A program made the translations under genes and the position numbers. A stretch of DNA of 43,371 bases from a virus: IMG/VR virus record IMGVR_UViG_3300036846_000730, positions 1-43,371 of that record, one strand, 5' to 3'. The notes under the pieces were generated by a model. That model saw only the letters and a list, made by a program, of their open reading frames with translations, was not told the origin of the DNA and did no database searches. Below, piece by piece: positions 23,054-38,614 of this stretch (position 1 is its first letter; each line of letters begins with the position of its first letter).

Positions 23054-23085
23054 ACCCGATCCTGCTCGCGGTCTTCATGGCGTTC

Positions 23086-23120: not shown

Positions 23121-23166
23121 TACCGCAGGCGGGCGGAGGAGATCCGAACCCCGACGCCCGTCTCGC

Positions 23167-25002: not shown

Positions 25003-25079
25003 CAGGCCGCTCCTCCGATGCGAGCTGCGAACACGATGCCCAGCGCCAGCAGCGCCAGGGCGTGGCAGAGGCGGATCAT
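25002..25079 (-). CDS. Possible 25-aa membrane micro-protein
   Basis: MIRLCHALALLALGIVFAAR then IGGAA: one hydrophobic helix with a basic N-terminus. The start is ATGA-coupled to the upstream gene and the stop overlaps the next start. The composition resembles a single-pass membrane peptide. Its frame contains the ribosome-binding site of the following gene, so translation could also be just a coupling device. Confidence 0.4.
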   Translation of the reverse strand: MIRLCHALALLALGIVFAARIGGAA

Positions 25080-25372: not shown

Positions 25373-25415
25373 CGGATCTCCTCTGTGAACGGGCTCCGAA
25401 GGGCCCAGGCGGTTG

Positions 25416-25778
25416 TCAGTCCTCTCGCTCGACACGCGGGTGGTGGTGCTCACCAGGGACGCATCGACTGGTGCAGGCCACCGGGTGAGCGGCCAACCAG
25501 GCGTCGACCTGGTCCTCGACCGCGGGCGGCGCGTACGGCTTGTCCTCCTGGGCGGCGTCCAGGACGCGCTGGAGGCGGAGGGCGACCATGTGCTTGCAGT
25601 CGACGCCGCGGTTGGCGTGGTCTGGGCAGGTGCAGTCCCAGTCGCTGGTCACGTAAAAGGCGCCCTCGGCGCTTGCGCTCGGGATCAGGAAGTGCCCCGT
25701 CTGCACCTCGACCAGGCTGGTGAGCGCGCCGGTGGCGACCAGCTCGATCGCTTTCGTCTGTCGGTTCGTCAGGTTCAT
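25416..25778 (-). CDS. SWIM-type zinc-finger protein (120 aa)
   Basis: The start is the ATG 13 bases after the predicted transcription start of promoter copy A. The motif CTCPDHANRGVDCKHMVAL (CxC...CxH) is a SWIM zinc finger, preceded by the usual strand (GAFYVTSDWD) and followed by a helix. SWIM domains bind DNA or protein and occur in plant transposases, MEKK1 and recombination-linked proteins. The C-terminus has an extra Cys/His cluster (CTSRCVPGEHHHP). It is probably an early nucleic-acid-binding or regulatory factor. Confidence 0.75.
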   Translation of the reverse strand: MNLTNRQTKAIELVATGALTSLVEVQTGHFLIPSASAEGAFYVTSDWDCTCPDHANRGVDCKHMVALRLQRVLDAAQEDKPYAPPAVEDQVDAWLAAHPVACTSRCVPGEHHHPRVERED

Positions 25779-25788
25779 GTCAGGATCT

Positions 25789-25837
25789 CCCACCCAGATA
25801 ATAGCAGGTTCGATCAGTAACGTGCAGGATTGATCAG
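25789..25837 (-). promoter_or_regulatory. Early promoter copy A
   Basis: 49-bp element related to the copies at 26891, 28468 and 29381. On the minus strand: CTGCAC as -35, an 18-base spacer, and TGCTATTAT as extended -10. The predicted start is the first G of GGGAGATCC, so the SWIM-gene transcript would begin at its ribosome-binding site. It is the most diverged of the three close copies. Confidence 0.65.
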
Positions 25838-25843
25838 CGGAGC

Positions 25844-26863
25844 CTAGTCGGCCCCGAAGATCTCCTCGTACGTGCGCCCTGGGCGGTAGGAGCTCTTGCC
25901 GTACCGATCGTCCAGGCTGGGCGCGACGCCCGCCTTGCGCAGGATCTGACGCCCGCTCTCGAACGTGCCGTCGTTGTGGCCCTTCCACTGGCTCGGCGCC
26001 AGCTCGCCCGCCAGGGTCTGATCGACCGTGGTAGGCTCGACCTGAGCCGGAACTGCCTCAACCTCTGGCTCAACCTCAGGCGCGGGGGCGGCGGTCACGG
26101 TCGCCTCCGCTGCCTCGACCGACGCCGGCTTGCTGGTCTCGCCCCAGGGCAGGTTGTACCTGGCGGCGCACTTCGGGCCGTAGCCCATCTCGATCGACTC
26201 GAGCGTGTCCAGCGCCTTGCCGCAGAAGCAGCACTGGCCACCCTCGCGGCTGAAGGCGAGCGCGTGCACCAGCCAGTCGCCCTCGCGGACTGAGCCGACC
26301 AGGACGTCCAGGGCAGCCTTCAGGCTGTTGCGCATGTTCCAGGCGCCGCGGCTCAGGCTGACCGCACCGTCGTCGATGAAACCGGCGAAGATCCAGTTGG
26401 CGCCCTGGCCCAGGTAGCTCAGCGAGCGCGTGCCCTCGGGCATGTCGGTCGCCCACTTCGCGTCGCCCAGGCGGACCGCCAGGCTCGAGCCGTCGGCCTG
26501 GACCACCCGGTAGCGCGAGCTCGGGACGCTCGCGACGTTCGGGAGCTGCGCCTTCTCGCCAGCCTTGCGCGAGCCGCGCGTCCAGGCGGTGATCGCGCAG
26601 TTCAGGCAGCCGGCCATCTGCCGCGGCGAGAGCTTCCAGCCCTGGAGGAGCGCCGCGCGCTGCTCGAGCATGAACTGGAAGTCGCCCTCGTACGTCCGCG
26701 CGTACTGCTCGCCGACCAGGTCCAGCCAGCGGTAGGTAGCCAGGTCCATGTCCTGGAACTTGCGGTCGAGCTCCTCGCGCAGCGCGATCGTCTTGCTCAT
26801 CGCGGCCGACCAGCGGTTGGTGTCGGCGAAGATGCGCTGGGCTTGCGTCAGTTGGTTGTTCAT
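25844..26863 (-). CDS. Early protein with DUF6011-type zinc finger (339 aa)
   Basis: The ATG follows GAGGAGATCCG. Residues 1-100 are helical. The central part is beta-rich (SSRYRVVQADGSSLAVRLGD). Residues ~205-245 (GGQCCFCGKALDTLESIEMG then YGPKCAARYNLPWG) match the DUF6011 pattern CxFCGxxL...S...GYGPxCA, a treble-clef-like zinc site common in phage and plasmid proteins. A long Ala/Pro/Val/Glu linker precedes a C-terminal segment. Transcription probably starts from promoter copy B, and the leader has a 6-bp hairpin. Exact function unknown; a role in DNA transactions is a family-level guess. Confidence 0.6.
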   Translation of the reverse strand: MNNQLTQAQRIFADTNRWSAAMSKTIALREELDRKFQDMDLATYRWLDLVGEQYARTYEGDFQFMLEQRAALLQGWKLSPRQMAGCLNCAITAWTRGSRKAGEKAQLPNVASVPSSRYRVVQADGSSLAVRLGDAKWATDMPEGTRSLSYLGQGANWIFAGFIDDGAVSLSRGAWNMRNSLKAALDVLVGSVREGDWLVHALAFSREGGQCCFCGKALDTLESIEMGYGPKCAARYNLPWGETSKPASVEAAEATVTAAPAPEVEPEVEAVPAQVEPTTVDQTLAGELAPSQWKGHNDGTFESGRQILRKAGVAPSLDDRYGKSSYRPGRTYEEIFGAD

Positions 26864-26876
26864 CGGATCTCCTCAG

Positions 26877-26895
26877 GTGGGCGTGGGTGGCCCAC
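26877..26895 (-). promoter_or_regulatory. 5' leader hairpin before the DUF6011 gene
   Basis: GTGGGC (26877-26882), a 7-base loop and GCCCAC (26890-26895), in the predicted leader just upstream of the ribosome-binding site. The same geometry recurs at 29367-29385. The predicted start lies at the 5' edge of the hairpin, so the RNA would begin with the structure. Confidence 0.45.
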
Positions 26896-26939
26896 CCATA
26901 GAATAGCAGAAACGATCAGGAGCGTGCAGTATTAATCAG
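26891..26939 (-). promoter_or_regulatory. Early promoter copy B
   Basis: Identical over 49 bp to copy C at 28468-28516. Minus strand: CTGCAC (26924-26929), 18-base spacer, TATTCT (26900-26905) with an upstream TG. It drives the DUF6011 gene. The TGA stop of the 53-aa gene upstream lies inside the element. Confidence 0.7.
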
Positions 26940-27097
26940 ATGGGGTGCACGTCAGACTGCGTCCCGAGCACGCGGCGAATGTCGTCGATCGCGGGCAGGA
27001 TCCTGTTGGTGATCGGCTCGGAGGGCTCGAGCTGGCTCTCGATGCGCCGCAGCGCCGCCTCCACCTGGCGGCGCTCGGTGAGCGTCAGTTTGGCCAT
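26936..27097 (-). CDS. Hypothetical early protein (53 aa)
   Basis: MAKLTLTERRQVEAALRRIE, then a short linker (SQLEPSEPITNRILPAIDDI) and RRVLGTQSDV. It is probably two helices, charged, possibly dimeric. The start overlaps the previous stop (TGATG) and the stop lies in promoter copy B. Function is not recognised. The size and helical character would fit a small binding or inhibitor protein. Confidence 0.5.
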   Translation of the reverse strand: MAKLTLTERRQVEAALRRIESQLEPSEPITNRILPAIDDIRRVLGTQSDVHPI

Positions 27098-27300
27098 CAG
27101 TCGACGTCTTCCGGCTCGTCGTCGGCGTGGTCCATGTCGTTGATGCGGTCGTCGAACTGGCTCATGCCGCTGGTCAGGAGCTCCGCATAGAGCTGGTCGT
27201 AGGTGCGGATGCCAGCAAAGGCGAGCGCCTCGACTTCGAGCGGGTCGAGGTGGAAGCGAACCACGATGGTCCGCGCCTTGAACTCCTTCTGCTTAGTCAT
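27097..27300 (-). CDS. Hypothetical early protein (67 aa)
   Basis: The start overlaps the upstream gene by 8 bases. The product is MTKQKEFKARTIVVRFHLDP, then LEVEALAFAGIRTYDQLYAE and an acidic C-terminus (DDRINDMDHADDEPEDVD). A strand followed by two helices and a strongly acidic tail fits a small adaptor or a DNA-mimic-like inhibitor, but this is speculative. No recognised family. Confidence 0.5.
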   Translation of the reverse strand: MTKQKEFKARTIVVRFHLDPLEVEALAFAGIRTYDQLYAELLTSGMSQFDDRINDMDHADDEPEDVD

Positions 27301-27670
27301 CGGACTTCTCCATCGCGGCTGCTTCGAGCCGCAGGCAGCGGAAGCTGCAGAACTGCTGGCGGATACTGCGCGTCTCCGCGGGGCGGCTGAGCATCGGCTC
27401 CGGACGGCTGAGCTCCATCCAGCCGACGGGCAGCTCGAGCTTGTAGAGCGCGTGGTGCTGGCGCGCATGGTACTGGCGGCGCTCCTCGCGCTCCTCCAGT
27501 GGCAGGCGCCAGTCGGTGCCGGTGTCGCTCTGCGCGTCCAGGAACTCCTGGTCGAGCGCCTCGAAGCTGCCGGGGATGACAGCGTAGCGGGCGCACTTCA
27601 GGCGCGAGCAGTGCACCTCGCCGAGCCAGGGGTTGCCTGGCCCGCCGCGGCGTCCAATTGATCGGCTCAT
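27293..27670 (-). CDS. Cys-containing early protein (125 aa)
   Basis: The start is at the ATG preceded by GAGGAGATCCG. Two Cys pairs (HCSRLKCARYAV near residue 22 and FCSFRCLRLE near 112) flank a central Arg/Glu/His-rich helix (EEREERRQYHARQHHALYKL). The two pairs could form one zinc site with the ends brought together. There is no catalytic motif. It overlaps the next gene by 8 bases. Probably nucleic-acid-binding, given its Arg/His content. Confidence 0.5.
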   Translation of the reverse strand: MSRSIGRRGGPGNPWLGEVHCSRLKCARYAVIPGSFEALDQEFLDAQSDTGTDWRLPLEEREERRQYHARQHHALYKLELPVGWMELSRPEPMLSRPAETRSIRQQFCSFRCLRLEAAAMEKSDD

Positions 27671-27681
27671 CGGATCTCCTC

Positions 27682-28461
27682 TCAGTTCCGGCGCGCCTCG
27701 CGGCGCACCAGGTTGTCGTAGGCTTCGGTCTCTTTCGCCAGGCTCATCTCGAGCAGGCGGGCGTCGCCGCACTCGGCGAAGTACTTGCAGGAGTAGCCCG
27801 TGGTCTCCACCCAGTAGATGGTCTCCAGGTCTTCCTTGCACCAGGAGCAGGGCAGGATCTCGCCCTTCCTGGTGGCGGCGGTCTGGGGGCGGGTCTCGCC
27901 GCAGACCATGCAGCGCGCCGGCAGCGGGCGGGCAGCCTTGCGGCTCTCGACCTGCTCGCGGACCGCACGCCGCTCGGCGACGCCGTCGACCTGCTCGCCG
28001 AAGAACCCGCTGCGGCAGTTCAGGCAGTTGATGGCGTCGGTGTCGGCGAGCTCGGCGCTCCAGGCGCCGGTGCCGCGGACGTTCTCGAAGCGGCAGACCG
28101 GGCGGACGGCGATCACGTCGCCGACCTTCGGCTGCTCACAGTAGTGGCCGTAGCAGCCGTGCTCGGCGATCTGGTGTGCTCGGCGGGCGGCGATCTGCTC
28201 GGCCGTGTCCCAGGCGCCGCCGCGGACGCTGGCAGCGCAGTAGGTCTGCCAGCAGTAGTCGGGGTGGATCTCGGTGATCACCGTCGCCACGCTCAGGTGC
28301 AGCTTGTCGCCACCCTGACCGCGGCCGTTGAAGCCGTCGCGGCTGTAGGCGAGTCCCCACTTGCCGACGCGGTACTCGGTGACCACCTCGAAGTCGGGGC
28401 GGCTGCCCGCGGTGCGGAAGCTCTCGTTGAGCTCGGCCAGGTTCTTCCGTGTCATGGTCAT
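27682..28461 (-). CDS. Multi-zinc-ribbon early protein (259 aa)
   Basis: The first ATG (28461) is 4 bases after GGAGATCC and fits the predicted 9-base leader. A second ATG six bases on is possible. The C-terminal two thirds contain many Cys pairs: CYGHYCEQ, CLNCRSGF, CMVCGETR, CSWCKEDL and CKYFAECGD, i.e. at least two zinc ribbons. The N-terminal part is mixed alpha/beta (FEVVTEYRVGKWGLAYSRDG). No enzymatic signature. It is probably a protein or nucleic-acid adaptor made early in infection under promoter copy C. Confidence 0.55.
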   Translation of the reverse strand: MTMTRKNLAELNESFRTAGSRPDFEVVTEYRVGKWGLAYSRDGFNGRGQGGDKLHLSVATVITEIHPDYCWQTYCAASVRGGAWDTAEQIAARRAHQIAEHGCYGHYCEQPKVGDVIAVRPVCRFENVRGTGAWSAELADTDAINCLNCRSGFFGEQVDGVAERRAVREQVESRKAARPLPARCMVCGETRPQTAATRKGEILPCSWCKEDLETIYWVETTGYSCKYFAECGDARLLEMSLAKETEAYDNLVRREARRN

Positions 28462-28467
28462 GGATCT

Positions 28468-28516
28468 CCCACCCATAGAATAGCAGAAACGATCAGGAGC
28501 GTGCAGTATTAATCAG
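28468..28516 (-). promoter_or_regulatory. Early promoter copy C
   Basis: 49-bp element identical to copy B. CTGCAC, an 18-base spacer and TGCTATTCT on the minus strand. The predicted start is 9 bases before the ATG of the 259-aa gene, so the message would begin GGGAGATCC and lead straight into the start codon. The element also overlaps the stop of the 65-aa gene upstream. Confidence 0.7.
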
Positions 28517-28706
28517 GTGGGTCGAGGCGGTTGACGATCGCCAGGCCGAGCGCCAGCGGCGCGCCGAAGAGGGTCAGCATGGTGGCCAGGCCGACCATCT
28601 GGTCCAGGAAGCCGCCGCGGTGGTAGAGCTGGACCGGGTCGAAACCGAGCGCGACCGCGGCGAAGATGGCGCCGCCCGCCAGGGCGGCACCGAGCATCAC
28701 CTTCAC
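28509..28706 (-). CDS. Small membrane protein (65 aa)
   Basis: Two hydrophobic segments: LGAALAGGAIFAAVALGF near the start and MVGLATMLTLFGAPLALGLA in the second half, joined by a polar loop (DPVQLYHRGGFLD). Basic N-terminus. The ATG overlaps the upstream stop (ATGA). A two-pass inner-membrane protein of unknown role; exclusion or membrane-tuning functions are typical of such early genes but unproven here. Confidence 0.55.
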   Translation of the reverse strand: MKVMLGAALAGGAIFAAVALGFDPVQLYHRGGFLDQMVGLATMLTLFGAPLALGLAIVNRLDPPD

Positions 28707-29086
28707 GCCAGCCGCCCGATGCGGTGCGCGCGGCGCCGATCGTTCCGATCCCGCTGCGCCTGGTCGTACAGGTCGGCCAGGATGCGGTTGCGGGCGTTCG
28801 CTCGCGAGAGGGTGGGGCGGTAGGTCGCGGCCGTCTCCGAGACCATGAAGTTGAAGCTCGGGAAGGCGGTCTCCTGGCGCGTCAGCCAGTCGGCGATCTG
28901 GCGGCGGAACAGGTGCCAGACCGAGCCCCAGCCCTGCATGATCGGCCGACCCTGGTCGGTGTAGATCCAGCCGCCCTGGGCGCCGTGCCAGCCCTTCTCA
29001 GCGAGCGCCCACTGGCGGCAGACGATGCGCACGTCGCGATCGTCGAGGTTGGAACGGGTAGCGGTGGTGCTGGCGAGCACGGTCAT
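28703..29086 (-). CDS. Hypothetical early protein (127 aa)
   Basis: Starts MTVLASTTATRSNLDDRDVR with GGAGAG upstream, overlapping the stop of the gene before it. The centre is Trp-rich (RQWALAEKGWHGAQGGWIYT; WGSVWHLFRRQIADWL). The C-terminus is a long basic helix (LYDQAQRDRNDRRRAHRIGR). Trp and Arg content suggests nucleic-acid or protein binding. No family recognised. Confidence 0.5.
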   Translation of the reverse strand: MTVLASTTATRSNLDDRDVRIVCRQWALAEKGWHGAQGGWIYTDQGRPIMQGWGSVWHLFRRQIADWLTRQETAFPSFNFMVSETAATYRPTLSRANARNRILADLYDQAQRDRNDRRRAHRIGRLA

Positions 29087-29352
29087 GAGTTGCTCTCCTG
29101 CCGAGCTGCCTCGGCGTCCATGAAGCGGGTCACCTCGGCCAGCGAGTGCCAGGCGTGGATCTCCTCGCCCGAGACGACGATCACGCGCTCGCCGCCGCCC
29201 TTGATGGCGCGCTTGCTGAACAGGTCCGGGTCGAGCTGCATGTTCGGGCGGCTCATGCAGCAGCGGCAGTCGCGATCCCAGCCGGCGGGCGTCATCACTG
29301 GGTTCGCGAACGCGCGCTGGAGGATCTTGGAGCGGATGCGGTCGGTGGTCAT
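29083..29352 (-). CDS. Hypothetical early protein with Cys cluster (89 aa)
   Basis: The ATG is preceded by GAGGAGATCCGAC. The product has a basic N-terminus (TTDRIRSKILQRAF), a Cys cluster (WDRDCRCCMSRP), a strand pair (GGGERVIVVSGEEIHAW) and an acidic helix. It is the first gene of the transcript from promoter copy D and carries the hairpin leader. The Cys cluster may bind metal. Function unknown. Confidence 0.5.
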   Translation of the reverse strand: MTTDRIRSKILQRAFANPVMTPAGWDRDCRCCMSRPNMQLDPDLFSKRAIKGGGERVIVVSGEEIHAWHSLAEVTRFMDAEAARQESNS

Positions 29353-29366
29353 GTCGGATCTCCTCG

Positions 29367-29385
29367 GTGGGCGTGGCTCGCCCAC
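29367..29385 (-). promoter_or_regulatory. 5' leader hairpin before the 89-aa gene
   Basis: GTGGGC (29367-29372), a 7-base loop, GCCCAC (29380-29385). Same arms and loop length as at 26877-26895, at the predicted 5' end of the transcript and just before the ribosome-binding site. Confidence 0.45.
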
Positions 29386-29429
29386 ACACAGTATGCCAGA
29401 TACGATCAGTATCGTGCAGTAATTCCCTG
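29381..29429 (-). promoter_or_regulatory. Early promoter copy D
   Basis: The most diverged copy of the element. CTGCAC and the CTGATCGT core are kept, and the -10 is CATACT. The predicted start again falls on a GGG. The element overlaps the last codons of the VRR-NUC gene. Confidence 0.55.
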
Positions 29430-29789
29430 CCGCCGCCAACTCTCGATCTGGGCCTGGATCATGTCCGCATCGCGTGGTCTCCACACTTCGGCGTACACCT
29501 CGATCGAGCGGAACAGCTCGAGCCAGTAGAGCTGGCTGGTCGTCACCCGACCGCGGTCCTGCTTGAGCTCGATCGCGATCAGGCGCACGCCCGGCAGGAT
29601 GGCGATGATGTCGGGGAAGCCCGGCTCCGACTTGCGCGAGTCGAACGTGTGGTAGGTCACAAACCCGGCACGGTGCAGCCAGGCGCGCACCTGGACTTGC
29701 CAGGCACGCTCGCCAACGGTGCTCAGCAACACCTCGCGCCCTTTGCCTGGATCGTGTGGCGACCTAAAACCCGGCATGAGGTACCTCAT
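29406..29789 (-). CDS. VRR-NUC domain nuclease (127 aa)
   Basis: Stand-alone VRR-NUC fold (PD-(D/E)XK superfamily). An N-terminal Glu/Gln helix (GERAWQVQVRAWLHRAG) is followed by HTFDSRKSEPGFPDIIAILP, holding the metal-binding Asp, then LIAIELKQDRGRV with the ExK motif, and a C-terminal TSQLYWLELFRS...VWRP. The length is usual for phage VRR-NUC proteins, which are thought to cut branched or recombination intermediates; in phages they often lie near replication genes. The ATG at 29789 lies in a palindrome shared with the divergent Rpf-like gene. A second ATG at 29777 is possible. Confidence 0.85.
   Translation of the reverse strand: MRYLMPGFRSPHDPGKGREVLLSTVGERAWQVQVRAWLHRAGFVTYHTFDSRKSEPGFPDIIAILPGVRLIAIELKQDRGRVTTSQLYWLELFRSIEVYAEVWRPRDADMIQAQIESWRRQGITARY
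29776..29789. repeat. 14-bp palindrome holding both divergent start codons
   Basis: ATGAGGTACCTCAT reads the same on both strands. The ATG of the Rpf-like gene (plus, 29776) and the ATG of the VRR-NUC gene (minus, 29789) are its two ends, so both products begin MRYL. Confidence 0.8.
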
Positions 29790-30093
29790 CAGCGTCGCAA
29801 CGACGTGTGTGCTCCTGCTCGCAGCCGCACCAGCTCACGCCGAGTCCGCGGCGACCTGGGACCGCCTGGCGGAGTGCGAAAGCGGCCAGCGCTGGCAGCT
29901 CGATAGTGGGAATGGGTTCTATGGCGGTTTGCAATTTACGCTCGAGAGCTGGGTGGGAGCCGGCGGCGAAAAGTACGCCTGGCGGGCGGATTTCGCCACC
30001 CGCTCAGAGCAGATCGAGATCGCCGAGAACCTGCTCGCGCTACAGGGCTGGCGCGCCTGGCCGACCTGCCGCCGGATCCTCGGCCTGTACTGA
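29776..30093 (+). CDS. Secreted Rpf-like (resuscitation-promoting factor) muralytic protein (105 aa)
   Basis: An N-terminal signal peptide (MRYLISVATTCVLLLAAAPA then HA|ES) is followed by a compact Rpf domain that fills the protein. It shows WDRLAECESGQRW with catalytic-type Glu35 and Cys34, SGNGFYGGLQF, a helix, and AWPTCRRILGL with Cys98, probably disulfide-bonded to Cys34. Rpf domains are lysozyme/transglycosylase-like and typical of Actinobacteria, where they open peptidoglycan and help dormant cells regrow. The gene is the only rightward gene in the leftward early block. No good ribosome-binding site is visible. It could aid wall turnover, lysis, or reactivation of dormant hosts. Confidence 0.8.
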   Translation: MRYLISVATTCVLLLAAAPAHAESAATWDRLAECESGQRWQLDSGNGFYGGLQFTLESWVGAGGEKYAWRADFATRSEQIEIAENLLALQGWRAWPTCRRILGLY

Positions 30094-30267
30094 CCGCGGC
30101 GTCGGCAGTGAGCCGTGCTCCAGGTCGCGGCCGAGCTCGAGGCGGTAGCGCACGATGTCGAACATGAACCGGTGGATCAGGTCTTCGTGCGCGATCGCGA
30201 CGGTGCGCCAGCGACGGCCGAGCTCGGTGAGCCCGTCGTCGTCGGCACTAAGCCGCCGCCGTGGCAT
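30040..30267 (-). CDS. Hypothetical protein (75 aa)
   Basis: The ATG lies inside the end of the HTH gene (20-base overlap), and its last 54 bases run tail-to-tail into the Rpf-like gene. The product has a basic start (MPRRRLSADDDGLTELGRRW) and a helix (RTVAIAHEDLIHRFMFDIVR). The final ~15 residues, where it overlaps the other strand, look unselected. Function unknown. Moderate doubt that it is a gene. Confidence 0.45.
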   Translation of the reverse strand: MPRRRLSADDDGLTELGRRWRTVAIAHEDLIHRFMFDIVRYRLELGRDLEHGSLPTPRSVQAEDPAAGRPGAPAL

Positions 30268-30457
30268 TGCTGCGCTCGGCGATGAACGTGTCCAGGTCGG
30301 TGCGGTCGACGCGCCAGCCGCCGCGGTCGGAGATGATGACGCCGGGGATGACGCCCTCGCGCAGCCAGATGCGGATTGTGTTCTGGCTGATGCGGAGCTC
30401 GGCCGACACCTCGGCGACGGTCAGGTAGTTGTGGGCGGGTGCTTTCTTGATGGCCAT
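30248..30457 (-). CDS. HTH_17/excisionase-like DNA-binding protein (69 aa)
   Basis: The product reads HNYLTVAEVSAELRISQNTI, then RIWLREGVIPG and DRGGWRVDRTDLDTFIAERS. This is the MerR-like winged HTH of excisionases and phage regulators. Length is typical (60-75 aa). The ATG at 30457 is preceded by TATAAT only 6 bases upstream, so its message is predicted to start at the A of the ATG (leaderless). It faces the replication genes and is well placed to control them or the early operon. With no integrase present, a regulatory rather than excision role is more likely. Confidence 0.75.
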   Translation of the reverse strand: MAIKKAPAHNYLTVAEVSAELRISQNTIRIWLREGVIPGVIISDRGGWRVDRTDLDTFIAERSNATAAA

Positions 30458-30463
30458 GAGCGG

Positions 30464-30469
30464 ATTATA
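30464..30469 (-). promoter_or_regulatory. -10 box of a leaderless promoter for the HTH gene
   Basis: Perfect TATAAT on the minus strand, ending 6 bases before the ATG. With the usual spacing the start is the A of ATG. A GTGCAGCAC near-palindrome (30475-30483) lies just upstream and contains the CTGCAC box seen at -35 in the repeated promoter, perhaps an operator. Confidence 0.5.
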
Positions 30470-30537
30470 GATGTGTGCAGCACCGACCAGTCTGATATCA
30501 TGCTGGCACACCGCGCCGAGGAGGCACCGACCACCGC

Positions 30538-30564
30538 TTGACCGACCCGCGACCCGTCTACCGT
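30538..30564 (+). promoter_or_regulatory. Weak candidate promoter for the replication genes
   Basis: TTGACC (30538-30543) and TACCGT (30559-30564) with a 15-base spacer, ~30 bases before the ATG at 30595. The spacing is short. A TATCAT near 30495 is another option. Some rightward promoter is needed in this divergent gap (30458-30594), but which one is uncertain. Confidence 0.25.
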
Positions 30565-30594
30565 ATCCGCCGCCTAGTCACCAGAGGTTACCGA

Positions 30595-31260
30595 ATGCCT
30601 GGTCTTTCATCGCCTACCGAGTCGTCCGGTCTCGAGCTGCCCGAGCTCGACGAGGACGACACCTACACGGGCACGCTGCTCGAGATCGAAGAGCGCGAGT
30701 CCACCTACACGGGCAAGTCGAAGCGCCCGCCGCGGTACACCGCCGACGGCAAAATCGTCCCCGAGACCACGATCGTGTGGAAGTTTGGCCTGGCCAGCTC
30801 CGACGGGACCAAGGTCACCCGCGACGACGGTGCGCCGTTCGAGCTCTGGTCGTTCTCGTCGACGTCGACGAAGCTGGCGACGCGGAGTACGCCCCTGGCT
30901 CGAGCCCGCGAGTACATGCATGCCCTGTCGGGCCGCGAGCTCTCCGACGACGACGTTGTCGACATGCTCCAGGAGTACGACTCTGGCCTACCCGAGGGGC
31001 TGGTCGGGAACAAGGTCACGCTGAACGTCAAGTACGAACAGAAGGAGGGCAAGAACCCGCGGTACGTGATCGACCGCATTCGCCCCTTCAAGAAGAAGGC
31101 GCGCCCTGCGCCAGCTCCGACGCCGCCGCCCGCGGACGACGATCAGTACGAGGAGGACGAGCCGACGCCGGCGCCGAAAGCGGCCGAGACCAACGGCACA
31201 GGTAAGAAGGCGAGCCGACGCCCTCAGCAGACCGTCGTCGAAGAGGACGAGGCACTGTAG
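30595..31260 (+). CDS. Putative OB-fold/ssDNA-binding-like replication accessory protein (221 aa)
   Basis: ATG at 30595 with AGAGG upstream; an in-frame TTG at 30538 lacks support. Residues ~15-165 form a beta-rich domain (YTGTLLEIEERESTYTGKSK; TTIVWKFGLASSDGTKVTRD; LVGNKVTLNVKYEQKEGK then YVIDRIRPF) with the strand pattern of phage OB-fold proteins found next to DNA polymerases. The C-terminus (~170-221) is acidic and Pro/Ala-rich (ADDDQYEEDEPTPAPK), like the flexible tails of single-stranded-DNA-binding proteins. Position just before the replication polypeptide supports a role in replication. No known SSB motif is exact. Confidence 0.55.
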   Translation: MPGLSSPTESSGLELPELDEDDTYTGTLLEIEERESTYTGKSKRPPRYTADGKIVPETTIVWKFGLASSDGTKVTRDDGAPFELWSFSSTSTKLATRSTPLARAREYMHALSGRELSDDDVVDMLQEYDSGLPEGLVGNKVTLNVKYEQKEGKNPRYVIDRIRPFKKKARPAPAPTPPPADDDQYEEDEPTPAPKAAETNGTGKKASRRPQQTVVEEDEAL

Positions 31261-31272
31261 ACTGCGCGGATT

Positions 31273-31298
31273 GGCGGCAGGGCTCCCACCCTGCCGCC
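31273..31298 (+). terminator. Perfect 10-bp hairpin between OB-like gene and polymerase gene
   Basis: GGCGGCAGGG (31273-31282), 6-base loop, CCCTGCCGCC (31289-31298), starting 12 bases after the upstream stop. There is no T-run after it. It could be a partial terminator or RNA-stability element that lowers polymerase expression relative to the OB-like protein. The rest of 31261-31333 holds nothing else clear. Confidence 0.5.
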
Positions 31299-31333
31299 GC
31301 TCCTCACCAACTCCAGAAAGCGGGATTCTTCCG

Positions 31334-34300
31334 TTGGCTGATACCAATCCTACAACAAACGCAGAGCAAGGCCACAATAGCCTGCTCAGTGCTGCACTCG
31401 GCTACCACGATGCGGGTATCCCCGTCTTTCCGCTCTGCTCGCCCGCCTGGGGCCCGCACACGCACTACGACACGGCTTCGAAGAAGCAGGTCGAGTGCCC
31501 CGAGACGAGCTGGGGCAAGCATCCCCTCGTTCGCTGGCGGCAGTTCCAGACGGTGCTGCCGTCGCGCGAGAAGGTCGAGCGCTGGTGGACGCGCTGGTCT
31601 GACGCGAACATCGGCATGGCCACGGGCCACCTGTCGGGGCTCGTCGTCGGCGACTTCGACGGCCACGTCGCGGTCCAGGAGGCGAAGCGGCGCGGCCTGC
31701 CGTCGACGGCGTTCGTCAGGACGGGCAAGCCAGGCGGGCAGCACCACTACTTCGCCTGGTCGGACGATGCGCCGCGCAACTTCGCCGGCGCCGTCGGCGG
31801 CATCGACTACCGCGGCGAGGGCGGCTACGTCGTCCTGCCGCCCAGCCGTCACTACCTCGGCCCGTACTACGCCTGGGGCTCGCCGCTGGTCGCGCAGCTA
31901 CCCGAGCTGCCGCTCTGGTTCGCCGAACTCAAGAACGAGCGTCGCCAGAAGCCGCCGACCGACGACGGCAAGGTCTACGAGCCGGGTCGGAACGACGCGC
32001 TGACCAGCCGCGCCGGCACCTACCGCGCCGCGGGGCTGGACGAGTCCGAGATCCTGGCGTTGCTGCTCAAGTTCAACGCCGACCACTGTGTGCCGCCGCT
32101 GGGCGAGGTTGAGGTGACCGTGATCGCCCACTCGGTCAGCCGCTACGAGGCTGGTGAAGCCGGCTCTCCGCCGATGGGCAAGGGCAGAGCTCGGAGCCGG
32201 CGCGCCGAGCCCGAGCCCGAGGACGAGCATGATCGGCGCATCTTGTACGCGCTGCCGACCTTCCCGCTCGCGGCGCTGCCAGCCGAGGTGCAGGCGTACT
32301 GCCGCGGCTCGTCGTACCCGACGCCCTACCTGGCTGGAGCAGCAATGGCCGCGCTGGCCATCGCCATCGGTGGCAACGCCAGCGTCGTCCTCGGTCTGAC
32401 CAAGCTCGAGCGCATCATCATCTGGTCGATCCTGCTCGGGCGCAACGGGCTGGCCAAGTCCGACTCGCTCGAGTCAATGTTCCGCCCGTTGCTCGACGCC
32501 GATCGTGCTGCGCACAAGCGCTTCCAGAAGGAGCTCGCAGACTGGCGCGAGGCGAAGGCAGCCGGCCACAAGGAGGATCCGCCCGTCGACCATCGCCTCC
32601 TGCGCGGCGACATGACCGGGCCCGCCCTGATCCGCCAGCTCAGGGTGCTGGCCGACACTGGCCTGTACATCCCCGAGATCAGCCGCGTGCTGCGCAACAC
32701 GCTCTCGGGCCGCGACGTACGTGCGCTGCTCGACCCGGGGCTGATGCTCAGCCTGTGGACGGGTGACGACGTCACCCAGGGACGCGTCGGCGAGGGCCGC
32801 GGCGGCGGCAACGACCTGGACCTGTTCGCGCCCGAGCCGACGGTCTCGATCGCCGGCGACATGCAGACGTTCCTGCACCCGTTGCTCGGCTCCGACCAGG
32901 ACGGCTCGCGCCCACGCTGGCAGCCGTACGCCTGGGACACACCCTGGGACGGCCACACGCGCGAGCCCACCGAGGACGTCATCAACGCCTACCGCGACCT
33001 GATCTGGCGCCTGGTCAATCGGCGCAGCCAGAAGCGCGAGTGGCACCTGGACGAGCGTGGCCAGCGCGACCTGGCGCTGTTGACCAGCGACTGGGCCAAG
33101 CGCGGGCGGTCCGCGGAGCAGGCGACCTACCAGGCCGCGCTCTTCAAGGCGCCGCGCCATCTGCCGCGCCTCGCCGGCGACCTGGCCGAAGCCGCGGCGA
33201 CTAGCGTCGACTATCGGTCGACCCTAGACCCGGTCTACCTGGAAGCCGCCGCCAAGCTGGTCGAGTACCACCTCGGCGTCTGGCTGTACCTGGGCGACGC
33301 CGAGACCCTGTCGCTCACCCAGGTGACCCAGCGGCTCGATCCCGCGGTAGACCGCGTGCGCCTGTACATCGAGCAACAGGGTGACATCGACGCCGAGACC
33401 GGTCGGCGATCGGTCACCGCCAAGCGTCTGATCAACCACGGCGTGGCTGGCGTCAAGGACGTCGAGACGCGCGATCAGCTCGTCGATCGGTACACACGGT
33501 TCTACCCCGGCTGCCAGGTCAAGCGGGGCAAGTCGGTCGTCCTGCTGGCGCCCGAGCGGCGCCAAAACGGCGGCGAACCACCCGTCGATTCGCCCCAGGA
33601 GCCGCAAAACGACCCGTCGATTCCCCCTGAGGCACCCGTCGATTCGTCAAAAGCACCCGTCGATTCGTCAAAACAACCCGTCGATTCTCCCAATCAACCC
33701 GTCGATTCGGGGGAATCGACGGGTACGAAAACGCCATCTCGCGCCCGCGCGCGCGAGGCAACGGCCGAAACCGAGGTAGCTGAGATCGTTACCGAAGCTA
33801 ACGAATCGGGGGGAATCGCTCCTGAACAGCCCTCGGAAAATGGCAATCTCGCGCCCGCGCCTGGCGCGCCCCCGCCTGGCGCGCGCGTCACGCGCGCGAA
33901 GACAACTCCTGGCAAGGCCGAGCTGAAGCTCTACGCCGACGCGGCGTACACGCTGGTCAGCTCGGAGGCAGGCTTCGCCAAGGCGCTGCTCTGGCTCGCC
34001 GAGGCGGACACGGTCGCGCTCGACCTGGAGACCACCCATCTGCGGCCCCAGGTTGGCCAGGTGCGGCTGGCTCAGCTCGCCGCCGACGTCGACGGCGTCC
34101 GCAGGACATTCGTCTGCGACCTGTGGCGGTGCGGCGAGTGGCAGGGCCCGCTGGGCAACCTGCTCGCGCATGACGAGATCACCTTCGTCGGCCAGGAGAT
34201 GCCCTTCGACCTGGGCTGGTTGTCCAGCAACGGCATCGGGTTACCGCGGAACCTGTTCGACGTGCGCATCGCCGCGATCGTGACCGAGCAGTCTGGCTCA

Positions 34301-35770
34301 CCTGGTCGGAGCTACGACCTGCGCTCAATCACGCGCGAGCACCTCGAGCGGCGTCTGGTCAAGGAGCTCCAGGCGAGCGACTGGTCTGGCGACCTGACTG
34401 ACGCGCAGCTCCAGTACGCCGCCAACGACGCCGCGGTCCTCCTGGATCTGCACAAAAAGCTCTGGGTACGCATCCAGCTCGCTGATCGCGAGCAGGTCTT
34501 CGACCTGGAGATGAGCCTGACGGGACCGATGGTCTGGCTGCGCGAGGCTGGCCTGCCGATCGACGTCGGCCTGTGGCGAGCGCGCACGGTCGAGGCGAAC
34601 GTCGAGCACGGCGCCAAGCTGCTCGAGCTGCATCACCTGGCCGGCACGATCCAGGAGACGCACAAGGGCGGCAAGTCGGCGAGCAAGAAGAGCCTGGCGG
34701 CGCGTGGCGAGACCGAGCACAACTGGGGCTCAGCGCCGCAGAACCTGGCCTGGTTCCGCGCTCAGGGGCTGGATCTAGAGACCGCGGGCAAAGAGGCGCT
34801 GACGCAGGTCGAGCACCCCGCAGCTCGCGCACTGCTCGAGTGGCGTGCCCTGGGGCGCCGAGCGTCCTACGGCCAGCAGGTACTCGACAAGGCACTGGTC
34901 GGTGACCGCGCGTACGGCAGCTTCACCCAGCTCGGTACGGCGACCGGCCGCATGTCCTGTCGGACGCCGAACCTCCAGCAGATGAACCGCGGGCGGCACT
35001 ACCGCGAGGCGGTGCGCGCGTCCGCAGGACACACCCTGGTCAAGTGCGACTACTCGGCGCTCCAGATGCGCATCGCCGCCGAGATCTCGGGCGACCCGAC
35101 GCTGATCCAGCTCTTCAACGACGATGGCGACCCGCACACCAACACCACCGTCGACGTGCTGCATGCGTCCGCGGACGACGACGTGGCGCGTGTGGTGGCC
35201 AAGGGCGTCAACTTCGGCTTCCTGTTCGGCGCCGGCGCTCGCACGGCACGGGTGACGATCCGTACCGGTTACGGCCAGGATCTGCCGCTCGAGACCGTCG
35301 AGGAGTACCGCACGCGCTACTTTCAGACCTACCCTGGCCTGAAGGACTGGCACAACCGCTGGGAGCACGCCGTGCGCGAGGCGCCGCTAGACGTTCCCGA
35401 CCCCAGCGGGAGCGGTCGCTGGCGGATGAAGGTGCTCAAGTACACCGAGCGCATCAACACGCCTGTCCAGATGGTCGAGGCGCACGGCGTGAAGCTCGCG
35501 CTACTTCGTTTGCACCGTGAGAAATCCGCCTGGCCAGGCGTCCGCCTGGTGATGATCGCCCACGATGAATTCGTGGCCGAGGTGCCGGTCAACGACGCTG
35601 ACGCCTATGGCGAATACCTGCGTGGGGTTATGCGCTCGGAGATGGCGACTCTGCTACATTCTGTACCAGTCAAAGTCGATCTGACGATCAATCCGACCTG
35701 GTGGAAGGACAAGGCAGCGCAGCCTGAGGTGCTGTTGAGCGAGCTCGACGATGAAGAGGAGATCCGATGA
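31334..35770 (+). CDS. Replisome fusion: primase-polymerase + DUF3987-type helicase + 3'-5' exonuclease + family A DNA polymerase (~1478 aa)
   Basis: TTG at 31334 is chosen because it follows the hairpin; TTG at 31271 is upstream of it. Residues ~15-200: AEP primase-polymerase (GDFDGH with D107/D109; GQHHYF with H137; IDYRGEGGYVVLPPS). Residues ~300-740: DUF3987-like P-loop ATPase (LLGRNGLAKSDS, Walker A 369-376). Residues ~745-865: Pro/Ser linker. Residues ~866-1050: DEDDy exonuclease (ALDLETTH with D897/E899; PFDLGW with D959; YAANDA with Y1028/D1032). Residues ~1060-1478: polymerase with motif A CDYSALQMR (D1239), motif B RVVAKGVNFGFLFG (R1286, K1290, F1294, F1298) and motif C HDE (1410-1412). 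All active-site residues seem present, so one chain could prime, unwind, proofread and extend. The position equivalent to E. coli Tyr766 is Phe. Confidence 0.9.
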   Translation: MADTNPTTNAEQGHNSLLSAALGYHDAGIPVFPLCSPAWGPHTHYDTASKKQVECPETSWGKHPLVRWRQFQTVLPSREKVERWWTRWSDANIGMATGHLSGLVVGDFDGHVAVQEAKRRGLPSTAFVRTGKPGGQHHYFAWSDDAPRNFAGAVGGIDYRGEGGYVVLPPSRHYLGPYYAWGSPLVAQLPELPLWFAELKNERRQKPPTDDGKVYEPGRNDALTSRAGTYRAAGLDESEILALLLKFNADHCVPPLGEVEVTVIAHSVSRYEAGEAGSPPMGKGRARSRRAEPEPEDEHDRRILYALPTFPLAALPAEVQAYCRGSSYPTPYLAGAAMAALAIAIGGNASVVLGLTKLERIIIWSILLGRNGLAKSDSLESMFRPLLDADRAAHKRFQKELADWREAKAAGHKEDPPVDHRLLRGDMTGPALIRQLRVLADTGLYIPEISRVLRNTLSGRDVRALLDPGLMLSLWTGDDVTQGRVGEGRGGGNDLDLFAPEPTVSIAGDMQTFLHPLLGSDQDGSRPRWQPYAWDTPWDGHTREPTEDVINAYRDLIWRLVNRRSQKREWHLDERGQRDLALLTSDWAKRGRSAEQATYQAALFKAPRHLPRLAGDLAEAAATSVDYRSTLDPVYLEAAAKLVEYHLGVWLYLGDAETLSLTQVTQRLDPAVDRVRLYIEQQGDIDAETGRRSVTAKRLINHGVAGVKDVETRDQLVDRYTRFYPGCQVKRGKSVVLLAPERRQNGGEPPVDSPQEPQNDPSIPPEAPVDSSKAPVDSSKQPVDSPNQPVDSGESTGTKTPSRARAREATAETEVAEIVTEANESGGIAPEQPSENGNLAPAPGAPPPGARVTRAKTTPGKAELKLYADAAYTLVSSEAGFAKALLWLAEADTVALDLETTHLRPQVGQVRLAQLAADVDGVRRTFVCDLWRCGEWQGPLGNLLAHDEITFVGQEMPFDLGWLSSNGIGLPRNLFDVRIAAIVTEQSGSPGRSYDLRSITREHLERRLVKELQASDWSGDLTDAQLQYAANDAAVLLDLHKKLWVRIQLADREQVFDLEMSLTGPMVWLREAGLPIDVGLWRARTVEANVEHGAKLLELHHLAGTIQETHKGGKSASKKSLAARGETEHNWGSAPQNLAWFRAQGLDLETAGKEALTQVEHPAARALLEWRALGRRASYGQQVLDKALVGDRAYGSFTQLGTATGRMSCRTPNLQQMNRGRHYREAVRASAGHTLVKCDYSALQMRIAAEISGDPTLIQLFNDDGDPHTNTTVDVLHASADDDVARVVAKGVNFGFLFGAGARTARVTIRTGYGQDLPLETVEEYRTRYFQTYPGLKDWHNRWEHAVREAPLDVPDPSGSGRWRMKVLKYTERINTPVQMVEAHGVKLALLRLHREKSAWPGVRLVMIAHDEFVAEVPVNDADAYGEYLRGVMRSEMATLLHSVPVKVDLTINPTWWKDKAAQPEVLLSELDDEEEIR
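33581..33723. repeat. Iteron-like array (six direct + one inverted CCCGTCGATTC), candidate replication origin
   Basis: Direct copies start at 33581, 33613, 33635, 33656, 33677 and 33698. An inverted copy (GAATCGACGGG) is at 33713-33723, forming with the last one a hairpin of 11-12 bp around GGGG. Spacings are 32, 22, 21, 21 and 21 bp, i.e. whole helical turns. Five direct copies encode PVDS, but the 33613 copy is in another frame (DPSIP) and the inverted copy encodes GESTG. The 11-mer is therefore conserved as DNA, not just as protein. It lies in the linker between helicase and polymerase parts. Confidence 0.7.
33773..33807. other. A/T-richer patch beside the iteron-like array (possible unwinding element)
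   Basis: A stretch of roughly even A/T and G/C content in a very GC-rich area, 50 bases after the inverted iteron. It contains CGTTA...TAACG arms. It is flanked by alternating GC tracts (33739-33756 and 33886-33899) able to form hairpins or Z-DNA. An origin-unwinding role is a guess from arrangement. Confidence 0.35.
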
Positions 35771-36027
35771 GTGCTAGCAACGAGTGGCAGGAGCGCCACC
35801 TGACCCCAGCGGGCTGGCTGGATGGCTCGACCAAGCTGGACCACTACCGCACGCCGACGCACGTCGAGCCGCCCGCGGACCGCGTACTGTCAGTCACCGT
35901 GCACGATTACTGGCCGTCGATGGCGCGCCGTGAGCACTGGATCGACGAAGACTATCGCTCTGAAGACGGCGAGCTGGTGACCCGTCTGCTCGAGCAGTTC
36001 GGCCAGCCATCGCCGTACGTCGGCTGA
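35767..36027 (+). CDS. Hypothetical protein after the polymerase (86 aa)
   Basis: ATGA overlap with the polymerase stop, with GAGGAGATCCG before the ATG, the same ribosome-binding box as in the early operon. The product begins MSASNEWQERHLTPAGWLDG and contains HDYWPSMARREHWIDEDYRS. It is Trp-rich, acidic and soluble. No recognised motif. Coupling to the replication protein suggests a replication-linked role. Confidence 0.5.
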   Translation: MSASNEWQERHLTPAGWLDGSTKLDHYRTPTHVEPPADRVLSVTVHDYWPSMARREHWIDEDYRSEDGELVTRLLEQFGQPSPYVG

Positions 36028-36783: not shown

Positions 36784-37230
36784 ATGCCGAAGCGGCGGGT
36801 GAGCGAGGCAAAGTCGCCCTACCTGCCCGTGCAACAAGTAGAGGCACAACAGGAGAGCTACCTGCGCCATCTCTCGCTCGACGGCACGGTGACCGGCGGC
36901 TGCAAGGCGGCGCACATCTCGATTCACACCGTCTACACCTGGCGCGAGCAGGATCCGAGCTTCGTCACTCGAGAGTACGAGGCTCGCGAGGCGTTCGCTG
37001 ACGTGGTTGAGCGGGAGATGGTGCGGCGCGGTATCCACGGCGTGGTCAAGCCCGTCTACCAGGGCGGCGAGCAGGTCGGCGAGGTGCGCGAGTACAGCGA
37101 CTCGCTCCTGGCCAAGCTGGCTGGCGCGGCGCGGCCGAACAAGTTCCGCGAGCGCGTAGACGTCAGCTCGAGCCAGTCGATCGTGGTGCGGATCGTGAGC
37201 GCACGCATTGACGCTCATTCGCTCGTCTGA
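36784..37230 (+). CDS. terS: Terminase small subunit (148 aa)
   Basis: A helix-turn-helix-like N-terminal part (YLRHLSLDGTVTGGCKAAHI, then SIHTVYTWREQDPSF) is followed by a helical central region (REAFADVVEREMVRRGIHGV) and YSDSLLAKLAGAARPNKFRER, which resembles the oligomerisation and C-terminal part of phage TerS proteins. It recognises the packaging site and loads TerL. It overlaps the TerL start by 23 bases. The subgroup and packaging mode cannot be read from this alone. Confidence 0.75.
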   Translation: MPKRRVSEAKSPYLPVQQVEAQQESYLRHLSLDGTVTGGCKAAHISIHTVYTWREQDPSFVTREYEAREAFADVVEREMVRRGIHGVVKPVYQGGEQVGEVREYSDSLLAKLAGAARPNKFRERVDVSSSQSIVVRIVSARIDAHSLV

Positions 37231-38614
37231 GCCGTACACCCGCACACCGGCGCCGCGGCCGAAGCCGCGGGAGACGGTGCTCGAGCTCGACTACGACGCC
37301 AGCGCCGACGAGCGCGACCAGATCTACGAGCCCTACGGGGCGGCGCTCGAGCTCATGCACTGTCGCGAGCGCGAGGTGCTGCTCGCCGGGCCGGCGAACA
37401 CGGGCAAGTCTCGAGCCTGCCTCCAGAAGCTGGACCTGTGCGCCATCCTGCGCCCGATGCGCGGCCTGATCGTGCGCAAGGTGCGGTCGACGCTCACCCA
37501 GGCGGCGCTGGTGACGATGAACGAGCGGGTGCTGCTCGAGGACTCGGGCGTCACCTTCCACCATGAGGACCAGGAGTACCGCTACCCGAACGGCGCCCGC
37601 ATCGCGGTGGCTGGCCTGGACGACCCGCGCAAGATCCTCTCGAGCGACTACGACATGATCTACGTCCAGGAAGCCACCGAGCTCACCGAGTACGACTGGG
37701 GCATCCTGATCAGCCGCCTGCGCAACGGCGTGCTGAGCTACCAGCAGATCATCGCCGACTGCAACCCCGGCCCGCCCGACCACTGGCTCAAGCAGCGCTG
37801 CGACCGCGGCGAGACGCTACTGCTCGAGAGCCGACACCAGGACAACCCGTCGGTAACCACTGAGTACCTGGAGGCGCTCGATAAGCTCCCCGGCTTCCTC
37901 TACCAGCGCCTCCGTCTCGGTCTCTGGGTCGCCGCGGAGGGCATGTACTTCGAGGAGTACACCCCCGAACATCACCTCGAATCCGCCTTCGATCCAGGCG
38001 AAGACTGGGTGCGCTGGGTGAGCGTCGACTACGGCTTCGCCGCCCCATTTTGCGCGCTCTGGTACGCCCGAGATCCAGCTACGCGGCGCATCCACGTCTA
38101 CCGCGAGCTCTACGGGACCGGGCTTCGCGATGAGGACCAGGCGCGCCTGATCGGCCAGAAGAACCAGAACGAGCGGCTGGCTATGGTCGTCCTCGACCCC
38201 AGCATGTTCAACGCCCGATCCGAGCAACAGCGCCCCTCCATCGCCCAGGTGTACGCCAGCATGGGCGTCAACAACCTGGCCAGCATGGGCATCGTAGCCG
38301 GCTTCAACAACCGCAAGCAGGGCTGGAGCATCGTCCGCCGTGCGCTCGCCTACGGTGACGACCTGGCGCTCGAGCGCAGGGTGGAGCCTGAGTACCTACC
38401 TCGGCTGAAGATCATGCCCGAGCGCTGCCCGAACCTGGTGCGTACGCTGCCGATGATGGTGCGCGACCCGCTCGACCCGGAAGACCTGGCGGATGAGATC
38501 AAGCATGTGAAGACCGAGGACCACGCGGTGGACGCGCTCAGGTACGGGCTGGCAGCCGAGGCGCAGGCGGGCTTGCCAACGGCACCTATGCGTGGGAGCA
38601 TCGTGCCGCGGTGA
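37208..38614 (+). CDS. terL: Terminase large subunit (468 aa)
   Basis: ATPase: GPANTGKS (Walker A, residues 61-68) and DMIYVQEATEL (Walker B with catalytic Glu155), with a coupling segment DCNPGPPDHW. Nuclease: VSVDYGFA (Asp274), VVLDPS (~336) and DHAVDALRYG (~447), the RNase-H-like three-Asp site. Length is usual for TerL. The start is TTG at 37208 inside TerS; the next ATG would cut off the N-terminus just before the Walker A motif. It pumps DNA into the prohead through the portal encoded two genes later. Confidence 0.9.
   Translation: MTLIRSSEPYTRTPAPRPKPRETVLELDYDASADERDQIYEPYGAALELMHCREREVLLAGPANTGKSRACLQKLDLCAILRPMRGLIVRKVRSTLTQAALVTMNERVLLEDSGVTFHHEDQEYRYPNGARIAVAGLDDPRKILSSDYDMIYVQEATELTEYDWGILISRLRNGVLSYQQIIADCNPGPPDHWLKQRCDRGETLLLESRHQDNPSVTTEYLEALDKLPGFLYQRLRLGLWVAAEGMYFEEYTPEHHLESAFDPGEDWVRWVSVDYGFAAPFCALWYARDPATRRIHVYRELYGTGLRDEDQARLIGQKNQNERLAMVVLDPSMFNARSEQQRPSIAQVYASMGVNNLASMGIVAGFNNRKQGWSIVRRALAYGDDLALERRVEPEYLPRLKIMPERCPNLVRTLPMMVRDPLDPEDLADEIKHVKTEDHAVDALRYGLAAEAQAGLPTAPMRGSIVPR

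What the first reader, a model, noticed from the sequence alone, without database searches (positions are those of the whole stretch)
31334..35770. One polypeptide carrying primase, helicase, proofreading exonuclease and family A polymerase
Seen: complete-looking motifs for an AEP primase-polymerase (DFD, H, GGYVVLPPS), a P-loop DUF3987-like ATPase (GRNGLAKS), a DEDDy exonuclease and PolA motifs A, B and C in one uninterrupted frame. Known: phages often fuse primase to helicase, or exonuclease to PolA. A full PrimPol-helicase-Exo-PolA chain is, to my knowledge, not a standard architecture. Inference: a near-complete replisome in one molecule, perhaps started at the nearby iteron-like array.
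Basis: partly seen in the sequence, partly recalled or inferred. Interest (0 to 1): 0.88.

Follow-up and report, generated by a model that had tools for sequence, protein, structure and literature searches.

The report
Four-enzyme phage replicase with embedded iterons

Summary
Window 31334-35770 (+) is one stop-free 1,478-codon frame: AEP primase-polymerase, PriCT-1, DUF3987 ATPase, DEDDy exonuclease, family A polymerase. No in-frame ATG/GTG/TTG exists between residues 705 and 909, so Exo-PolA cannot be started separately with its first exonuclease motif. Caveat on 'helicase': Walker A is normal for the family, but the Walker B Asp is Pro.

The fusion is not unique. The polymerase falls in a clade (100/100) whose nine members with complete 5' ends are all AEP-ATPase-Exo-PolA fusions, none from a cultured phage. 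The window's N-terminal half is instead closest to unfused PrimPol-DUF3987 proteins; a collinear relative (TerL 61-65% identical) has that gene and no PolA match. Modules were fused or swapped more than once.

The linker DNA holds seven copies of CCCGTCGATTC (six direct, one inverted), beyond what codon shuffling gives. Unfused PrimPol genes have such arrays just 3' of their stop in 28 of 70 cases (5' of the gene: 3 of 65). Likely reading: a self-initiating replicase whose origin-like array became its interdomain linker. GP55, the Pyrovirus polyprotein and PfPREX are precedents; this domain combination was not found in papers searched. All activities are inferred.

The parts
31334..35770 (+). 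CDS of the fused replicase, 1,478 aa, TTG start, TGA stop overlapping the next ATG
31394..31918 (+). AEP primase-polymerase domain (PF09250), residues 21-195, with D107/D109, H and D158 motifs
31985..32149 (+). PriCT-1 helical domain (PF08708), residues 218-272
32321..33274 (+). DUF3987 P-loop ATPase / predicted helicase, residues 330-647; Walker A GRNGLAKS, Walker B degenerate (YIPEIS)
33341..33547 (+). predicted winged-helix-like domain, residues about 670-738, candidate DNA-binding part
   Evidence: core pLDDT about 90; best Foldseek matches mostly winged-helix proteins, none significant
33569..33919 (+). interdomain linker, residues 746-862, Pro-rich, GC3 0.62 against 0.85-0.91 in the domains, no in-frame start codon
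33581..33723 (.). iteron-like array: six direct copies of CCCGTCGATTC (33581, 33613, 33635, 33656, 33677, 33698) and one inverted copy (33713-33723)
33950..34474 (+). DEDDy 3'-5' exonuclease (PF01612), residues 873-1047
34793..35701 (+). family A DNA polymerase (PF00476), residues 1154-1456; position equivalent to Klenow E710 is Gln
30538..31260 (+). upstream gene, 240 aa, acidic C-terminus; weak homologues in G001 and G005; an SSB-like role is a guess
35767..36027 (+). small ORF whose ATG overlaps the replicase stop (ATGA), likely translationally coupled
36784..38614 (+). terminase small (36784-37230) and large (37208-38614) subunits, showing phage context

Best explanation
It is a fused multi-enzyme replicase of a tailed phage that most likely also acts as its own initiator. 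Proposed order: the winged-helix part after the ATPase binds the iteron-like array lying in the linker-coding DNA of its own gene; the protein assembles and opens DNA there with the DUF3987 motor; the AEP domain with PriCT-1 makes a primer on the exposed strand; the attached Exo-PolA extends it with proofreading and probably strand displacement. Shown here: the frame, the domains, the motifs, the array, and relatives with the same domain order. Inferred: every enzymatic activity, origin function, and protein-array recognition. The gene most likely arose when a resident PrimPol-DUF3987 gene with an origin array just 3' of its stop was joined in frame, through that array, to a horizontally acquired Exo-PolA. 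The motor may be weak or non-hydrolytic because the Walker B aspartate is missing.
For: Domains and motifs. Single chain: no stop; no in-frame ATG/GTG/TTG at residues 705-909. Fused relatives of 1,315-1,348 aa from other metagenomes; PolA clade 100/100, marked by Gln at the steric-gate position in 16 of 16 rows (window held twice) against Glu in all 179 others. N-half kin are unfused: PrimPol tree 100/99, grouping with the fused-clade PrimPols rejected, p-AU 0.0013. Collinear relative G001 (TerL 61-65%) has PrimPol-DUF3987 and no PolA match. Array: 7 matches, all in the linker, 0 of 100 shuffles reach that; exceeds synonymous-codon permutation in 500 of 500 and has copies in another frame and on the other strand. 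Arrays 3' of unfused PrimPol genes 28/70 against 3/65 on the 5' side and 3/135 at other ORFs. Literature: the AEP-helicase-winged-helix replicase of pRN1 needs an origin element just 3' of its gene (PMC4234260); ori-lambda iterons lie within the O gene (PMC3985674).
Against: Walker B Asp is Pro. AlphaFold of the ATPase core failed (pLDDT 48, four sequences), so a helicase fold was not confirmed structurally. Foldseek matches for the winged helix are not significant (best E 0.33). No clear AT-rich unwinding element beyond a dip to 53% GC. Only one assembly carries this exact fusion.
Confidence: 0.6

Rival explanations
1. The chain is made as a polyprotein and cut in the linker, as reported for PfPREX, so that a primase-ATPase and an Exo-PolA work as separate enzymes.
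For: A 117-residue Pro-rich linker; PfPREX is described as a proteolytically processed polyprotein (PMC7689252).
Against: No protease was recognised by Pfam or PHROGs among the window ORFs scanned; linkers differ in sequence between relatives while fusion is kept throughout the clade.
Confidence: 0.2
2. The ATPase is no longer a motor. It is a structural or oligomerisation domain, and unwinding comes from PolA strand displacement or a host helicase.
For: Walker B Asp to Pro in the window against DE in all 12 distinct homologues with a GxxxxxK[ST] Walker A.
Against: Walker A and the Glu after the missing Asp are kept; the other fused relatives, read by eye, keep the Walker B Asp in their AAA_25 domain.
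Confidence: 0.35
3. The linker repeats only reflect a repetitive Pro-Val-Asp-Ser peptide linker, not an origin.
For: Five of six direct copies are in one frame and encode PVDS; a 21-bp period equals seven codons; linkers are often repetitive.
Against: One copy is in another frame and one is inverted; 0/500 synonymous permutations reach the count; fused relatives have different words repeated on both strands in both linkers; unfused relatives have arrays outside the coding region at the same place.
Confidence: 0.2
4. The fusion is an assembly or sequencing artefact that joins two neighbouring genes or two phages.
For: One metagenomic contig; no second copy of this exact gene was found.
Against: Same GC3 on both sides; genes on both sides of the replicase belong to the same phage lineage; an accidental join would need to keep frame; other independent contigs show fused PolA of the same clade.
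Confidence: 0.05

Closest known systems
GP55 replicase of lactococcal phage 1706 (PMC12205980, NAR 2025)
   Same: [quoted passage not shown] activities shown for GP55
   Different: Helicase first, alpha-helical domain instead of PriCT/HBD, and a family B polymerase; here AEP-PriCT-1-DUF3987-Exo-PolA
Pyrovirus OS3173 PolA polyprotein (PMC7689252)
   Same: Phage polyprotein of about 1,600 aa with an N-terminal replication ATPase fused to 3'-5' Exo-PolA; fused in some members, separate in others
   Different: DUF927 motor; an AEP domain is not named there. L259, a Thermovibrio MAG contig, shows AEP-TOTE...Exo-PolA but its relation to OS3173 was not tested
PfPREX, apicoplast primase-helicase-exonuclease-polymerase
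   Same: Primase, helicase, exonuclease and family A polymerase in one precursor; PREX polymerase is among the best PDB sequence matches
   Different: From established knowledge: TOPRIM primase and TWINKLE-type helicase, nuclear gene, processed; no TOPRIM domain found here
pRN1 ORF904 and related PrimPol-helicase replicases (PMC4234260)
   Same: AEP + ATPase + winged helix, origin element just 3' of the gene
   Different: SF3 helicase rather than DUF3987; no Exo-PolA fused; origin outside the gene and a stem-loop, not iterons
Phage lambda O / ori-lambda (PMC3985674)
   Same: Iterons embedded inside the initiator's own gene, units of about 20 bp
   Different: O is not a polymerase or primase
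Unnamed AEP-AAA_25-Exo-PolA fusions found here (L175, L176, L177, L179, L180, L182, L184, L185)
   Same: Same PolA clade, same domain order, iteron-like words in linkers
   Different: RepA-like AAA_25 motor; some have another AEP or a degenerate PrimPol motif A

Membership tests
Family A DNA polymerase with proofreading exonuclease | PolA motifs A, B, C and DEDDy exonuclease motifs | tested here: met
AEP primase-polymerase (PF09250) | DxD, H and D motifs plus PriCT/HBD accessory domain | tested here: met
AEP primase-polymerase (PF09250) | Primer synthesis in vitro | not testable with these tools
   needs protein
DUF3987 predicted helicase | Profile match over the domain and Walker A | tested here: met
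DUF3987 predicted helicase | Walker B Asp-Glu | tested here: not met
   PE in place of DE; DE in all 12 distinct homologues with a GxxxxxK[ST] Walker A; two more distant, weakly aligned ones (L322, L332) also deviate
DUF3987 predicted helicase | Structural match of the central segment to a helicase | tested here: inconclusive
   model too poor, pLDDT 48
GP55-type replicase | Family B polymerase with N-terminal helicase | tested here: not met
   family A polymerase and AEP first
Pyrovirus-type polyprotein | DUF927 fused to Exo-PolA | tested here: not met
   no DUF927; DUF3987 instead
PfPREX | TOPRIM primase with TWINKLE/DnaB-type helicase | tested here: not met
   AEP and DUF3987 found instead
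Fused AEP-ATPase-Exo-PolA clade | PolA monophyly and Gln at steric gate | tested here: met
Fused AEP-ATPase-Exo-PolA clade | N-terminal module of the same origin | tested here: not met
   AU test p 0.0013; the PrimPol groups with unfused genes
Iteron-type origin inside the initiator gene | Several ~20-bp direct repeats in the coding sequence, more than codon choice explains | tested here: met
Iteron-type origin inside the initiator gene | Adjacent AT-rich unwinding element | tested here: inconclusive
   only a dip to 53% GC in a genome of about 68% GC
Iteron-type origin inside the initiator gene | Bound by the encoded protein and used as origin | not testable with these tools
   needs binding and replication assays

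The most novel reading that the evidence does not exclude
A one-gene replicon: a single gene holds, in its interdomain linker, the origin iterons, and encodes the initiator, motor, primase, proofreader and polymerase that use them. Such genes arose more than once when phage PrimPol-helicase genes, which carry their origin array just 3' of the stop codon, were fused through that array to a PolA gene.
Probability: 0.45. Interest if true: 0.82.

Novelty: new variant of a known kind. Interest (0 to 1): 0.68.

Why it matters
It would give a family A counterpart to GP55: a compact, possibly primer-independent replicase with proofreading, of interest for whole-genome amplification. The embedded arrays make testable the idea that one gene can be both origin and replisome. 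The position rule (arrays 3' of PrimPol genes) offers a way to find origins in many uncultured phages from sequence alone.

Tried and rejected
A single-protein scan of viral contigs found no close relative; profile scans were needed. AlphaFold of the ATPase core with four sequences was too poor for a fold search. A wider DUF3987 alignment from bacterial genomes was used for motifs only, since the structure tool does not list such loci as allowed. Artefact by frameshift was considered and judged unlikely. L108 is a fusion but showed no linker array. A cruder test of linker repeats against random segments was strong for some fused genes only (window: 12 of 400 random draws as high), so the synonymous-codon test was used. 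A PDB sequence search with the AEP domain found nothing. A search of the open literature found no PrimPol-helicase-Exo-PolA fusion, but most subscription papers are not held. The L185/L184 N-terminus as an AEP rests on PHROG 'DNA primase' matches (5e-16) and motif reading, not on structure.

Full report
CHECK OF THE OBSERVATION. The window is a 43,371-base IMG/VR virus record, about 68% GC. The frame is open from 31070 to 35767; from the TTG at 31334 it codes 1,478 aa. Pfam finds, all above cut-off, Prim-Pol, PriCT-1, DUF3987, DNA_pol_A_exo1 and DNA_pol_A in that order. AEP (D107, D109, H, D158), exonuclease (D897, E899, D959, Y1028, D1032) and polymerase motifs are in place. Third-position GC is 0.85-0.91 in every domain. 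Between residues 705 and 909 there is no in-frame ATG, GTG or TTG, so Exo-PolA cannot be translated on its own from a standard start without losing exonuclease motif I (D897/E899).

THE MOTOR. DUF3987 is described in the literature as a predicted helicase that replaces known helicases beside AEP primases (PMC5862659). The window's Walker A, GRNGLAKS, is within family variation (GRPGINKS, GKSGMSKS, GRPGACKS). Its Walker B is not: YIPEIS where all 12 distinct homologues with a GxxxxxK[ST] Walker A have Asp-Glu; two more distant, weakly aligned members also deviate. A model of this region from four sequences was poor (pLDDT 48). The domain is a DUF3987 ATPase by sequence; whether it works as a helicase is open.

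RELATIVES OF THE POLYMERASE HALF. No record of 50,697 phages or 72,556 plasmids has one place covering 80% of the query. Profile scans of viral contigs found a clade of PolA genes, 33-39% identical to the window. All nine of its distinct members with complete 5' ends, the window included, are fused, with frames of 1,315-1,348 aa in the others: PrimPol-AAA_25-Exo-PolA (L175, L176, L177, L179, L180) or another AEP-like primase-AAA_25-Exo-PolA (L182, which is the same contig as L095; L184; L185; primase call from PHROGs). With the window they form one clade with 100/100 support. All 16 clade rows (the window is held twice) have Gln at the position of Klenow E710, the steric gate, where all 179 other PolA rows have Glu. 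Other fusions lie outside this clade: L108 (PrimPol...Exo-PolA, 1,504 aa), L255 and L257 (DUF3854...Exo-PolA, MAG contigs placed in Myxococcota) and L259 (AEP-TOTE...Exo-PolA, Thermovibrio MAG contig). Adjacent but unfused primase-helicase and PolA genes occur in L096 and L119 and in cyanobacterial plasmids, and near one another in Microbacterium phage Theresita (gp49, gp51). This is the expected precursor order.

RELATIVES OF THE PRIMASE HALF. The window's AEP is closest to L014, L015, L288 and L289, 43-49% identical and unfused; L014, L288 and L289 have the same PrimPol-PriCT-1-DUF3987 order. The AEP tree places the window with them (100/99), and grouping it with the AEPs of the fused clade is rejected (p-AU 0.0013). 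The PolA and AEP trees therefore disagree: the N-terminal module was swapped, or the fusion happened more than once. The phage of L014 (G001, 44,131 bp) is collinear with the window, with TerL 61-65% and another large structural protein 57% identical, and has no detectable PolA. More distant relatives with fused replicases (G004, G005) share some structural genes. The nearest named TerL is that of Thermobifida phage P1312, 48% over part of its length, so an actinobacterial host is possible but not shown.

THE ARRAY. Linker DNA 33581-33723 holds seven perfect CCCGTCGATTC, six direct and one inverted; no other match with up to one mismatch occurs in the 43-kb record, and 0 of 100 shuffles reach seven. 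Spacing is 32, 22, 21, 21, 21. The second copy is in another reading frame, and the count exceeds all of 500 synonymous-codon permutations that keep the protein. GC3 falls to 0.62 in the linker. In the fused relatives both linkers show lowered GC3 (0.51-0.72) and share a phage-specific word on both strands, e.g. CTGTTCC/GGAACAG in L179 and L180, AGCCGTCC/GGACGGCT in L184. The permutation test is passed strongly for most of them, marginally for L176, and not by L108.

WHERE ARRAYS SIT IN UNFUSED GENES. L014 and L289 carry arrays directly after the stop codon of PrimPol-DUF3987, with an AT-richer stretch and a dyad. Among 70 non-redundant unfused PrimPol genes, 28 (40%) have a significant 8-mer cluster within -150 to +300 of the stop, against 3 of 65 upstream of the gene and 3 of 135 at the ends of other ORFs; five or more copies: 24, 0, 0. 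This fits pRN1, where a replicase with AEP, helicase and winged helix needs a 100-bp stem-loop just 3' of its gene, a layout its authors also report in phages (PMC4234260). In the window that 3' element lies inside the gene because the frame continues into Exo-PolA, as ori-lambda lies inside O (PMC3985674).

LIKELY MECHANISM. The region just before the linker is predicted as a winged-helix-like fold (core pLDDT about 90; best Foldseek matches mostly winged-helix DNA-binding proteins, none significant). I propose that it binds the array, that the chain assembles there, opens DNA, primes with AEP-PriCT-1 and extends with Exo-PolA. Each step after 'the domains exist' is inference. Of the window ORFs scanned, no second primase, helicase or polymerase was recognised, which fits this gene being the replisome core.

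COMPARISON WITH THE KNOWN. GP55 has shown that one phage chain can hold all four activities, with PolB (PMC12205980). Pyrovirus has DUF927-Exo-PolA (PMC7689252). PfPREX has the four functions with other primase and helicase folds (established knowledge). The present chain is none of these by domain content; it is a new variant of the multi-enzyme replicase idea. I found no paper on AEP-ATPase-Exo-PolA fusions in the open library, which lacks most subscription papers.

VERDICT. Real, not an artefact on present evidence, a member of a wider fused clade, with a degenerate ATPase motif that weakens 'helicase'. The surprise is the origin-like array used as interdomain linker.

Noticed in passing
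70 unfused PrimPol loci among L003-L306: Iteron-like 8-mer clusters lie just 3' of 40% of phage PrimPol-helicase genes, almost never 5' of them; a possible general origin rule.
   Followed up: partly
window 35042-35071; L174-L186: Klenow E710 equivalent (steric gate) is Gln in all members of the fused PolA clade and Glu in all 179 others compared; possible effect on ribonucleotide or primer handling.
   Followed up: partly
L175, L176, L177, L179, L180 N-terminal domain: PrimPol motif A reads GLVDVAPDS, so the first Asp of DxD is lost; the primase may be inactive or altered in these fused relatives.
   Followed up: no
L002 5941-8352, L161, L165, L173: Uracil-DNA glycosylase domain (PF03167) fused N-terminally to Exo-PolA in several viral contigs.
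   Followed up: no
L255 3722-8638, L257 2881-7734: DUF3854...Exo-PolA fusions of 1,618-1,639 aa in contigs binned with Myxococcota MAGs, probably viral.
   Followed up: no
L259 3800-8530: Thermovibrio MAG contig with an AEP-TOTE...Exo-PolA fusion of 1,577 aa; its linker has CATTCCAC repeats on both strands. Possibly akin to the Pyrovirus polyprotein.
   Followed up: partly
window 31036-31121 (-): ARAGORN calls a tRNA-Phe antisense within the upstream coding gene; probably a false positive.
   Followed up: no
window 22500-30500: Region between structural genes and replicase with many ORFs mostly without family matches; 29719-30090 matches a transglycosylase family, 25844-26863 (-) matches DUF6011.
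   Followed up: no
window 15386-17755: Large tail fibre-like protein with matches to collagen-like tail families.
   Followed up: no
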